From a virus, in the IMG/VR virus record IMGVR_UViG_3300017713_000089, positions 1 to 23,450 of that record: 23,450 nucleotides of DNA; one strand, written 5' to 3'. Positions within the stretch are counted from its first letter, which is position 1. Each line of letters starts with the position of its first letter. The position numbers and the translations under genes were made by a program. The notes beneath the pieces were generated by a model. That model made no database searches and was not told where the DNA came from. It was given only the letters and a program-made list of their open reading frames with translations. Below, one piece after another: positions 537 to 23,450 of this stretch.

Positions 537-3500
537 TTACTCTTTTTATTTTTCTTTTCGTAAACTCCTGAAGACACCCCAAAGAACTCTGGTATTGTTA
601 TTGTAGCACCTTCAAATAATGTTAACTCCTGCTTGTGGGCTTCTATTGCTGTCTGAAATAAGATAGGTGTCAAAGACTGAAGTGCGGCTTCGCTCTTACT
701 TATATCCTGTCCTGTAACCCAATCCTCTCCATACACAAACTCGTGGAAGATACCGAATGGTGGTGACAGCTTCCACTTAACAAAGTTTGAGCCTGCTCTC
801 CATAAGTCAATATCGTCATCTGGCACAGCCCCCTTCTTGATAGCTTGTGCTAGTAATCTAAATGGCTGTTGGAAACCTGCCCATATATCCCAACGTCTGT
901 CACCTATGACTATCTTACCAAAGTCAGAATCTTCTGGGTCATCGCCCACCTCTGCACCCGCTAGTGCCGCAAGGGTAAGTACAGTCATACCTGCACCCAA
1001 GAACGAAAGCCATGTAGTCATCACCTCTGTCCGTAGCTCTGGATGCTTATTAAATATTTCAATTGACTTAGGAGCCATCTGAATTCGTGACATTGTAAAT
1101 CTAGGTGAGAAGAACACTAAAGATAACTGGTCAGCCGCACCTGCAAATTTACCAAGATCACCACGACCTAACCCCATATTTATAAAGTTAGCCCAAGCCT
1201 CCATTGCTTTTTTATTGCTTCGTAAATCTGGATTACGCTCCATAAGGTCTATCATTATCTCAACACCTAGCATATTAAGATAGTTTACCATATGACGTTC
1301 TGACATTCTTCGTATTGTTTTAAATACAGGTATTCTATCACCTAGCCTAGATGTAAATGCTTCTTCACCCTGTATTAAACCGCCATCAATATCTCTGATA
1401 AACAAACCAAATTCTTCTAAGTTGTAATCTTCAGCTCGTTTGCGTACATATATATCCACTTCTTCTGAAGTTGTTTCTTTAAAGAAAGTCATAAAGGCAT
1501 CTTTAAATACTTTGCTTGCTATAAATGGATGACGAGCAGATAAATACAAACCTTGTCTAGCAACAGAAGACATATCAGCCATAGTCAAAGCTAGTCGTGG
1601 AAAACCAATAATATCTGCTAAGTGGTATTTGTATATTGGTATACTTCTACCACCAACAGGTATTGCAAATAAAAAGTTTTCTTCTTTGGTTTCTTCTAAC
1701 CGTCTTATCTTTGACCTTAGTCTAACACGAAGTGCATTGAGCTTTCTTTCTAGCTCTAATACCTTTTCAGTTTTTTTAGTTCTCTTCTTCTTATTTAGTA
1801 TAGTTGTAAAGTCATTGTTTCTTAATCGTACCTCTAACTCAGCAATCTGCTTTTCTAGTTTTTGTATAGCTCGTAACTCATCCAGTTCTTCTTGTGCTTT
1901 TGTTACTGCTTCTGATCTAGCTTTCTTACTGCTCTTAGGATTGCCTACTTGATGAGCGGCTGTTCTAAGATTCTCAATCTTTTCACGAATCTTGCCTACA
2001 GTTTCATCATCGTATATAGTGTTAAGTGTATTAGCTAATCCTTCCAGTGCTTCTTCTAGTTTGTCTAGCTCTGCTAAAAACTGTTTTACATTCTTAGGGT
2101 TTGCACGAGTTTCTTTTTCTATATCAAACAATTGAGCCGCTAGTTCATTTACCCTTGTATCTGCATTAGACGCAATTTTAAGTAAAGCCATAAATGCAAC
2201 ATACTGTTTCTTTAAATCAAATGATGGCAATGTGTTGTTAGCAATAGCCATTTTAATTTGATCTATTGTAAACTCTTTCTTATCAACAACTAACGTATCT
2301 TGTATTTGTTTGTATATTTCTTCTGGAGATACTTTGCGACCTTCCTCTACAGCTCTGTTTACAAATACTTCAGCAAGTCTAGCTATCAGTTGTTCTTCTC
2401 TACCCTCGTAGTTTTCTGTGTCAATAACACCGCCTCTAAATCCACTAGCAGGTATGCGTTGTTCTTTACCACCAAACTTAGCTCTAAACACAATTTTTAA
2501 TTTATCTAAGCCTTTGTTTATTAATTGTTCTGTATCAGCAACACGCTTTTTAAAGAATCCATTTTTCTTAGTGGCTTTTTCCTCATAGTCTTCTATAACT
2601 GCATCAGCTATATCTGAACCAACTCTTATATCATCAGATGTATCAAGAACAGTAGATTCTATTTCATCTTCTGTTTCCTGCATTTCATTAAATGTATTAA
2701 CAATAAAATCTAAGTCTTCTTTTTCTAAAGCCCCGCCATTAGCACGAATAGCTTGTGTTAAATAATATTGTAAATCTTTTGTTCTACCTTGCCAACGCCT
2801 ATAAGCTAAAGCCCGTGCCTCTTGTGTGCCTGCTACTGTATATGCTGATATTAGTTGATTCATAACTTCAGCGGCAGAATCTCTAGTTGCCTCTAAGTCC
2901 ATAGCAATATCTGTATGTCCTCTGGCATATGCACCGTCAATAGATGCGTCTAGGTCTCGTATTTCTTTTAGTAAAATATTTATAGCTACTTGAAAACCAA
3001 CCGAATGCGTTACAATGTCTTGGCTTCCAACAGCTAGGCTTTCAACAGCTATTTGATACATATTTTTTATAAAATAATTTGAATCAAATTCACCATTTAA
3101 TGTGCCATAAGTCTGTAAAGCCGCTTTAGTGGCTTCTAATAGACCTATTCTTTCGGCAGGTGTGCGTTTTTCTAATCCAAGAGCTTCGATAATGTTATCG
3201 ATTCCTGCATTAGTAAAATCAAAGTTTATTTCTTCTCCAAAGATAACATCAAAGTCTGCTTCATCTTCAGTTCTTTGTTCTTTTGGTTGATTAAAACTTT
3301 CAAATGAAACAGATACTATTGGTCTTCTAGTTTCAGAAACTCCTCGTCTATCCCCATCACCGACAGGGTCTCCGACCAACTGAGTTCCGTCTTGAGTATC
3401 TCTTCGTACATAGGCTGTGCCTTCTTGATTTCTTCTATCAGCATCGGTTCTATATTGAGTCCACTCGTAGCTATCCAACTCGTTATTGACTGCTTCTTCT

Positions 3501-22599: not shown

Positions 22600-22613
22600 A
22601 ATGTTTAGAAGGG

Positions 22614-22642
22614 TCTATATTTCGAAAAATTTAAAATCGCAA
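22614..22642 (-). promoter_or_regulatory. Weak promoter-like element before the zinc-ribbon and terminase genes
   Basis: On the minus strand TTGCGA (22637-22642, 4/6) is followed by 17 bases and TATAGA (22614-22619, 4/6). It lies in the 59-base gap between two genes. Inverted copies of AGGGTC (22648-22653) and GACCCT (22610-22615) flank it, so a regulator could bind across it. G-rich runs GGGTAGGGTCGGG lie just upstream. The box matches are modest, so this is tentative. Confidence 0.35.
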
Positions 22643-22658
22643 AACCCGACCCTACCCT

Positions 22659-23066
22659 TTAATTTTGTACCTGCCCTTTGATTTCTTGGCAAGAGTTTAT
22701 GTTGTTTGTTGGTGTCTGTTGCTCCGAAAGATCATCGTAGTCTGTAATATCTTTAAAGCGTACTATCTCTATGCGAAGATCATCATTATCTTGCTTGATA
22801 TTTGTATACTCGGCAAAGTATTTCCCCGCTGTAGCGTTGCCGTCAAGCATCATTTGGTATAAATTTTGCAACGTGTGCGTGCGTGTAAGGCTTTGATCGT
22901 TGAAATCAATGGCGGTGGTTAAAACATTCGATTTATCCTTGTTTTTTTCGATTTGTTTTTCTTGTTTGCGTATAGTGTTGATTGTCTCTGTGCATATAGC
23001 ATAAAGCTCTTTGTTATCCGCTGATTTGATCTCATCATATAAGGTTTTGGCGTCTTTATATTTCAT
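22659..23066 (-). CDS. Possible terminase small subunit (135 aa)
   Basis: The AT-rich gene encodes a helical, charged protein starting MKYKDAKTLYDEIKSADNKE, with a Lys-rich coil (about 28-46), the segment TLQNLYQMMLDGNATAGKYF (about 65-84) and DNDDLRIEIVRFKD (about 94-107). Position four genes ahead of the large terminase, size and helical content suggest a small terminase subunit, but no helix-turn-helix signature is certain. I choose ATG 23064-23066; the frame stays open upstream to a GTG at 23232-23234, and the extra 56 residues differ strongly in base composition and may be a separate element. No good ribosome-binding site precedes any candidate start. Confidence 0.5.
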   Translation of the reverse strand: MKYKDAKTLYDEIKSADNKELYAICTETINTIRKQEKQIEKNKDKSNVLTTAIDFNDQSLTRTHTLQNLYQMMLDGNATAGKYFAEYTNIKQDNDDLRIEIVRFKDITDYDDLSEQQTPTNNINSCQEIKGQVQN

Positions 23067-23450
23067 ATTGCCAAGGTAAATCTGAACCCCCCAAATATCA
23101 ACTGAAAAAAGATGTGAAAGTTTTGCTTGCATACCTGTGAAGAATCCTGTAGGGTCACTATTGTAACGATTAATAAAGCGAGTCCGAGATGGTGCGAGTC
23201 GGGCGGTTGCAGATGACGGGCAACTCAAATACACGTTAATGCACTAAGCGTCTGAGTGGGTAACGGCAGGCATCCTTCGGGAGGCGATGGGAATGCTAAC
23301 AAGGCGGATAATGCGATACAACGGCTGAAACGTGTGACGGCAGACCAACGAAAACGGCGATGATATGACAAGCGAGACGAGATCATATCCTTAGCGGGTT
23401 ACTTACAAAACCGCTTCGAAATGGCGAAGACTTCAACGGGTTAATATCCT
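23067..23450. other. GC-rich, gene-poor region with hairpins; possible prophage regulatory RNA leader
   Basis: About 51% G+C by hand count of four 60-base lines (23161-23400), against about 27-32% in the adjacent gene. No frame of 60 codons lies wholly within it. Direct repeats include ACGGCAG (23263-23269, 23337-23343), CGGGTTA (23395-23401, 23437-23443) and ATATCCT (23385-23391, 23444-23450). Hairpins include TCC-TTCG-GGA (23273-23282), GATATGA/TCATATC (near 23361-23389), CTTCG/CGAAG (near 23413-23428) and GTTGC/GCAAC (near 23206-23224). The minus-strand frame at 23070-23234 reads ...SRTRFINRYNSDPTGFFTGM, which recalls Ash/Icd-like prophage leaders; this is from memory and unverified. A C4-type antisense RNA or a replication site are other readings. 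Confidence 0.4.
23263..23358. repeat. Four ACGGC motifs in the GC-rich end
   Basis: ACGGC occurs at 23263-23267, 23321-23325, 23337-23341 and 23354-23358, the first and third extended to ACGGCAG. Spacings between starts are 58, 16 and 17 bases, so the last three sit about one and a half helical turns apart. This could be a protein-binding cluster or chance in a GC-rich stretch. Confidence 0.35.

What the first reader, a model, noticed from the sequence alone, without database searches (positions are those of the whole stretch)
23067..23450. GC-rich, hairpin-rich right end resembles a prophage antisense-RNA/Icd-like leader
Composition jumps from about 30% to about 51% G+C, and the region holds several hairpins and repeats but no long gene. 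The minus-strand frame that runs on into the 135-aa gene reads RTRFINRYNSDPTGFF then GVQIYLGNMK, which recalls leaders of Ash/Icd-like proteins downstream of C4-type antisense RNAs in P1/P4-like prophages. If right, a lysogeny-type RNA switch sits directly before the packaging genes of a podovirus, or the window marks a recombination boundary.
Basis: inference. Interest (0 to 1): 0.6.

Follow-up and report, generated by a model that had tools for sequence, protein, structure and literature searches.

The report
Early-transcript leader before phage ribozymes
The G+C-rich end of this phage contig is most likely the untranslated start of the phage's divergent (probably early) transcript; in closely related phages it runs straight into a self-cutting RNA (a twister ribozyme) that would cut it off, so it is not a P1/P4-style antisense switch.

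Summary
The composition step is real: 23171-23450 is 50.4% G+C in a 37.7% window, the richest 280-nt stretch of the contig. It is not hairpin-rich: it folds no better than shuffles on either strand. No Rfam match, C4 included, even at E<=10. The 'Icd-like' minus-strand frame carries stops in relatives and has no meaningful Pfam match. It is not an assembly join: related contigs keep the junction. The contig stops ~20 nt short of the informative part.

Relatives show what follows. The region is the ~300-nt leader between the late operon (minus) and a divergent, probably early operon (plus). It ends in a type-P1 twister ribozyme whose P1 helix pairs the leader's 3' end with the Shine-Dalgarno of gene 1; P1, P2 and the L1-L4 pseudoknot covary. 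Twister-P5 or pistol ribozymes precede most following genes. The leader exists as exchangeable modules and holds a recombination breakpoint.

Best reading: an untranslated leader RNA of a ribozyme-punctuated phage operon, released by self-cleavage. Ribozyme-punctuated phage transcripts were proposed before (hammerheads, PMC3088659). The leader's own job is unknown.

The parts
22662..23066 (-). first gene of the late (packaging) operon, 135 aa, unknown function; the right-hand limit of coding sequence
   Evidence: ORF (the ATG at 23066 lies inside the 191-aa frame); relatives at 90-100% identity start at the same ATG; no PHROG match, no relevant Pfam match
23067..23170 (.). conserved control region between the divergent operons; candidate promoter on +: TTGCAT 23127-23132, 17 nt, TAGGGT 23150-23155, expected start near 23162
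   Evidence: alignment of five genomes keeps both hexamer sites and the 17-nt spacing. The hexamers are poor sigma-70 matches and the mechanical scan does not list them: inference
23162..23450 (+). G+C-rich untranslated leader, module type A, cut off by the contig end; in relatives it continues ~25-35 nt to the ribozyme cleavage site
   Evidence: composition, no ORF, 91.9% identical to L003 and L004, replaced by an unrelated module B in L005/L017
23311..23450 (+). right half of the leader, 99.3% identical in L021, whose left half, promoter region and late operon are different: recombination breakpoint inside the leader
23450..23450 (+). contig end; in L003/L004 the type-P1 twister ribozyme, whose P1 5' strand is CCTCTCTCATTG, begins about 20 nt further on, and gene 1 of the divergent operon follows
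   Evidence: the 4526-nt contig L002 is 100% identical and ends at the same base

Best explanation
The region is the 5' untranslated leader (about 300 nt) of the phage's divergent, probably early, operon, transcribed on the plus strand from a promoter at about 23127-23155. Just past the contig end the leader runs into a type-P1 twister ribozyme placed directly in front of gene 1. The ribozyme's outer helix P1 pairs the 3' end of the leader (CCUCUCUCAUUG) with the Shine-Dalgarno region of gene 1 (CAAUGAGAGG). Self-cleavage at U^AAUGC would detach the whole G+C-rich leader as a separate RNA with a 2',3'-cyclic phosphate, and would free the ribosome-binding site once the severed P1 strand falls off. 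Further twister or pistol ribozymes in front of most of the next genes would then cut the polycistronic transcript into single-gene messages. Shown by sequence: the layout, the ribozyme matches in relatives, their covariation, the modular leader. Inferred: that the window's own phage carries the twister, the promoter, the cleavage in vivo, and its effect on translation. Unknown: what the detached leader does.
For: Colinear relatives L003 and L004 continue the same leader into a type-P1 twister (L003 5595-5524 minus, 41.1 bits, E 5e-7; L004 E 1.6e-4, L005's contig as L026 E 4e-4, L017 E 0.01, and E 7e-5 when searched alone; L021 E 0.002). Type-P5 twisters above the gathering score precede three following genes of L003 and one just below it precedes a fourth; pistol ribozymes sit in gaps of the same operon in L021 and L023. 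Covariation read: P1 AUUG/CAAU becomes AUAG/CUAU (L017) and AACUUU/AAAGUU (L023); P2 UGC/GCA becomes UGU/ACA (L017) and UGUA/UACA (L023); pseudoknot GUGA/UCAC becomes GCGA/UCGC and GCC/GGC. All P1 3' strands contain the GAG(A/G)G of the Shine-Dalgarno. The genes beyond the leader run the other way and include DUF932, HIRAN/PD-(D/E)XK and GP88 proteins. The module is purine-rich (60%) on the + strand, and module B is better conserved than terL (96.8% vs 81.9%).
Against: The window stops before the ribozyme, so its presence in this very phage is extrapolated from phages sharing the leader at 92-99%. The P1-type matches lie below the Rfam gathering score (31-41 vs 67.2 bits), and L021 has A instead of U at the cleavage dinucleotide. 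In L005 and L021 a T-run insertion sits in the P1 strand. The promoter is weak by consensus. No transcript or cleavage data exist, and 'early' is judged from gene content only.
Confidence: 0.68

Rival explanations
1. A mosaic spacer: the leader has no function of its own, and its near-identity between phages reflects recent recombination at the early/late junction (compatible with the ribozyme context).
For: Breakpoint inside the leader in L021; wholly different modules in the same place; no structure, no ORF.
Against: The relatives examined keep a G+C-enriched leader: 0.48-0.52 for A/B, 0.40 in L023 against 0.33 overall, 0.44-0.47 in part of L014. A pure spacer need not.
Confidence: 0.3
2. 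C4-like antisense RNA: the leader, once cut off, acts on ribosome-binding sites. Its 3' tail CCUCUCUC-AUUG is complementary to the Shine-Dalgarno of gene 1 and, in part, of the other genes in the operon.
For: In three clades the tail pairs best with its own downstream sites: L003 sites -12.3 with own tail vs -11.8 with foreign tails; L017 -15.1 vs -11.0 and -10.5; L023 -14.0 vs -12.1 and -10.9 kcal/mol. Downstream sites follow the tail (CAAUG, CUAUG, GUUG).
Against: No C4 family match. The full leader pairs no better with early translation starts than with random mRNA (-17 to -27 vs mean -23). The pairing to gene 1 is fully explained as twister P1. Copies within one operon may simply share ancestry (three clades only), and L003 genes 4 and 5 do not match the tail. 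Part of the complementarity is what any anti-Shine-Dalgarno would show.
Confidence: 0.12
3. Processive antitermination leader (works like the put RNA of phage HK022): the RNA made right after the promoter modifies RNA polymerase so that it reads through the long operon.
For: Position directly after the candidate promoter and high conservation of exchangeable modules.
Against: put is a short pair of stable stem-loops (own knowledge); this leader folds no better than shuffles. No similarity between modules A and B that would show a shared polymerase-binding motif.
Confidence: 0.1
4. Assembly chimera at the contig end.
For: Composition step close to a contig end; the contig stops here.
Against: L003 and L004 carry the same junction over 1.5 kb and L021 carries the last 140 nt in another phage.
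Confidence: 0.02

Closest known systems
Clustered hammerhead ribozymes in prophage transcripts (Perreault et al. 2011, PMC3088659)
   Same: Several self-cleaving ribozymes flank single genes or short gene blocks of a phage transcript; proposed there to cut long RNAs into operon- or gene-length mRNAs, with cleavage shown in vitro and, for one triple set, in E. coli
   Different: Here type-P1 twister, type-P5 twister and pistol, not hammerhead; twister and pistol both serve as gap elements in related phages; the first ribozyme takes the Shine-Dalgarno of gene 1 into its P1 helix and has a ~300-nt leader in front
Twister ribozymes, type P1 (RF03160) and type P5 (RF02684)
   Same: Core sequence, P1, P2, P4 and the L1-L4 pseudoknot
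   Different: P1-type copies score below the Rfam gathering cut-off; P1 overlaps a ribosome-binding site
Pistol ribozymes (RF02679), known to lie near phage genes (PMC4604425)
   Same: Full-length matches above the gathering score in L021 and L023
   Different: None found in the window's closest relatives L003 and L005
C4 antisense RNA of P1/P7/P4-like phages
   Same: Leader RNA upstream of a phage operon, with complementarity to a ribosome-binding site
   Different: No family match; no Icd/Ash gene; the complementarity is a ribozyme helix; cutting would be by a ribozyme

Membership tests
C4 antisense RNA (P1/P7/P4 immunity) | matches the C4 covariance model(s) of Rfam | tested here: not met
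   no match at gathering score nor at E<=10 for 23000-23450 on both strands
C4 antisense RNA (P1/P7/P4 immunity) | icd/ash-type gene with leader downstream | tested here: not met
   minus frame: only a weak irrelevant Pfam hit, E 0.12; frame stopped in L003, L004, L017, L023
C4 antisense RNA (P1/P7/P4 immunity) | short stretches complementary to the target's ribosome-binding region | tested here: inconclusive
   present beyond the window but explained as twister P1; whole leader not above background
Type-P1 twister ribozyme (element next to the window end, in relatives) | full-length model match with conserved core | tested here: met
   model positions 1-68 covered, E 5e-7 (L003), E 7e-5 (L017); bits below the gathering score of 67.2
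Type-P1 twister ribozyme (element next to the window end, in relatives) | covarying P1, P2 and L1-L4 pseudoknot | tested here: met
   compensatory differences among L003, L005, L017 and L023 read by hand
Type-P1 twister ribozyme (element next to the window end, in relatives) | self-cleavage at U^A | not testable with these tools
   needs in vitro transcription; L021 lacks the U
Type-P1 twister ribozyme (element next to the window end, in relatives) | present in the window's own phage | not testable with these tools
   the record ends at 23450 and L002 ends at the same base
put-type antitermination RNA | stable paired stem-loops right after the promoter | tested here: not met
   module folds no better than shuffles

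The most novel reading that the evidence does not exclude
The twister ribozyme releases a phage-made small RNA whose 3' tail is an antisense to the Shine-Dalgarno sites of the whole operon, so that one self-cleavage both opens gene 1 and makes a trans regulator of the rest; tail and sites co-evolve between phage clades.
Probability: 0.1. Interest if true: 0.78.

Novelty: new variant of a known kind. Interest (0 to 1): 0.46.

Why it matters
The natural role of small self-cleaving ribozymes in bacteria and phages is still largely open. Here is a compact, comparable phage operon in which ribozymes of different classes occupy gaps between genes, and in which the first one takes a ribosome-binding site into its own helix behind a conserved leader. 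That makes 'ribozymes process phage early mRNA' directly testable with short constructs.

Tried and rejected
C4/Icd/Ash: no RNA or protein family match, frame not conserved. Group I/II intron: considered because of GTGCG-like letters, rejected since no Rfam match at E<=10 and module B lacks them. rRNA/tRNA or host mimicry: no similarity in E. coli genomes, no tRNA. Plasmid or phage records: none for the module (one search gave only a 41-nt hit at E 0.3). Coding: all frames broken; two protein-looking stretches searched against phage records without a meaningful result. Stable RNA structure of the module: folding z-scores +1.5 to +2.3 on the plus strand for type A; too few distinct sequences (two modules with 2-3 members each, plus one hybrid) for covariation within it, so no RNA model was built. 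One collection scan was wasted by a wrong gap length (repeated). The exact 21-nt motif of the right half is absent from the species genome collection.

Full report
What was claimed. A G+C jump at the right end of the contig with hairpins, repeats and no gene, read as a C4-type antisense RNA with an Icd/Ash-like leader on the minus strand, or as a recombination boundary.

Check. G+C is 0.375 in 22600-22999, 0.385 in 23067-23170 and 0.504 in 23171-23450; no other 280-nt stretch of the contig reaches that value. So the step is real, from 38% to 50%, beginning at about 23171. There is no ORF above 53 aa, and all six frames are broken. The region is not unusually structured: z is +1.1 on the plus and +2.5 on the minus strand against dinucleotide shuffles, and the same holds for the module alone. 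Repeats are few and short. Rfam gives nothing, at gathering scores for the window or at E<=10 for 23000-23450. The minus-strand frame RTRFINRYNSDPTGFF...GVQIYLGNMK has no relevant Pfam match. In relatives it carries one or more stops in L003, L004, L017 and L023.

What lies beyond the contig. The window is an entire IMG/VR record of 23450 bases. Contig L002 is 100% identical over 4526 nt and ends at the same base. L003 (38-kb contig) and L004 carry the same order, module plus late genes, at about 86% over 1.5 kb, and continue. L005 and L017 match only up to about 23171 and then have an unrelated module. Thus the junction is natural. The genes further out run the other way, so the region lies between two divergent operons. 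The far operon encodes a DUF932 protein, a HIRAN/PD-(D/E)XK protein and, in L021, a GP88-like protein; I call it early by inference.

Ribozymes. Rfam finds type-P5 twister ribozymes above the gathering score in that operon (three in L003, two in L005; two in L021). A permissive search finds one more P5 copy and a type-P1 twister directly before gene 1 of L003 (41.1 bits, E 5e-7). The P1 copy is also found in L004, L005's contig, L017 and L021. In L003 each of the first five genes has a twister in front; the following genes overlap or nearly overlap. In L021 two gaps hold pistol ribozymes instead (62 and 59 bits; gathering score 34.5), and the distant relative L006/L023 has two pistols. By eye, L023 also has a twister-like element before its first gene.

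Covariation. Reading the first element in L003, L005, L017 and L023: P1 is CCUCUCUCAUUG/CAAUGAGAGG, then ...AUAG/CUAU..., then CCUCUCUCAACUUU/AAAGUUGAGAGG. P2 is UGC/GCA, UGU/ACA, UGUA/UACA. The L1-L4 pseudoknot is GUGA/UCAC, GCGA/UCGC, GCC/GGC. In each case P1 includes the Shine-Dalgarno of gene 1. These pairs were read off by hand, not counted by the pair-counting tool.

The leader in the window. From a candidate promoter (TTGCAT 23127-23132, TAGGGT 23150-23155; spacing of 17 kept in five genomes; not listed by the mechanical scan) to the expected cleavage point the leader would be about 310-330 nt in the relatives. Module A (window, L003, L004) is 92-97% identical among members, and module B (L005, L017) 96.8% where terL is 81.9%. 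L021 joins a different left half to the right half of module A (99.3% over 140 nt with the window), and its late side is only about 70-72% similar to the other phages. So the leader is where early and late halves of these genomes have been recombined. Other relatives also have a G+C-enriched leader in this place.

Mechanism. Most likely the leader is made first, then detached by the twister; the cut breaks the P1 helix that holds the ribosome-binding site of gene 1. The detached leader may be inert, an antiterminator or an antisense RNA. Against a general antisense role, the whole leader pairs with early start sites no better than with random mRNA. For a limited one, the tail pairs best with downstream sites of its own phage in three clades, but these are few data and part may be shared ancestry.

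Known work. Clusters of hammerhead ribozymes around prophage genes, and the idea that they cut long phage RNAs into gene-length messages, were published in 2011 (PMC3088659). Pistol and twister ribozymes are known to lie near phage genes and near other ribozymes (PMC4604425). The present case is a variant: twister and pistol classes, a ribosome-binding site in P1, and a modular leader in front. My literature searches covered open-licence papers only, so earlier descriptions of this exact arrangement may exist.

Limits. The window ends before the ribozyme; cleavage, promoter and translation effects are untested; the P1-type matches are below the curated score.

Noticed in passing
L021 (3300048433_000447) 2993-3057 and 3386-3451; L023 2901-2970 and 2341-2402: Pistol ribozymes sit in gaps of the early operon; in L021 they occupy early gaps of an operon whose other gaps, and the gaps of L003/L005, hold twisters, i.e. 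ribozyme classes seem to replace each other.
   Followed up: partly
L014 4520-4640 (minus), also L012, L013: Distant relatives have before their first early gene a conserved element with an anti-Shine-Dalgarno stretch TTTCTTCTCCT complementary to AGGAGAAA and two hairpins, but no Rfam match: possible unrecognised ribozyme in the same architectural position.
   Followed up: partly
L003, L005, L021 type-P5 twister leaders: Most type-P5 twisters are followed by AGCACAGCGANNCAATGAGAGG, which resembles the P2' and L1 strands of the type-P1 twister; two alternative P2 partners per leader.
   Followed up: no
L026 16185-16236 (minus), L021 11584-11635 (minus): Glutamine (glnA) riboswitch aptamers in these phage contigs, above the Rfam gathering score.
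   Followed up: no
L023 770-870 and L014 4270-4320: Nearly the same hairpin GCATGGCACGAnCGGGTCGCTCCCGTTCCCAATTTTA occurs at the end of an early gene in two distant relatives.
   Followed up: no
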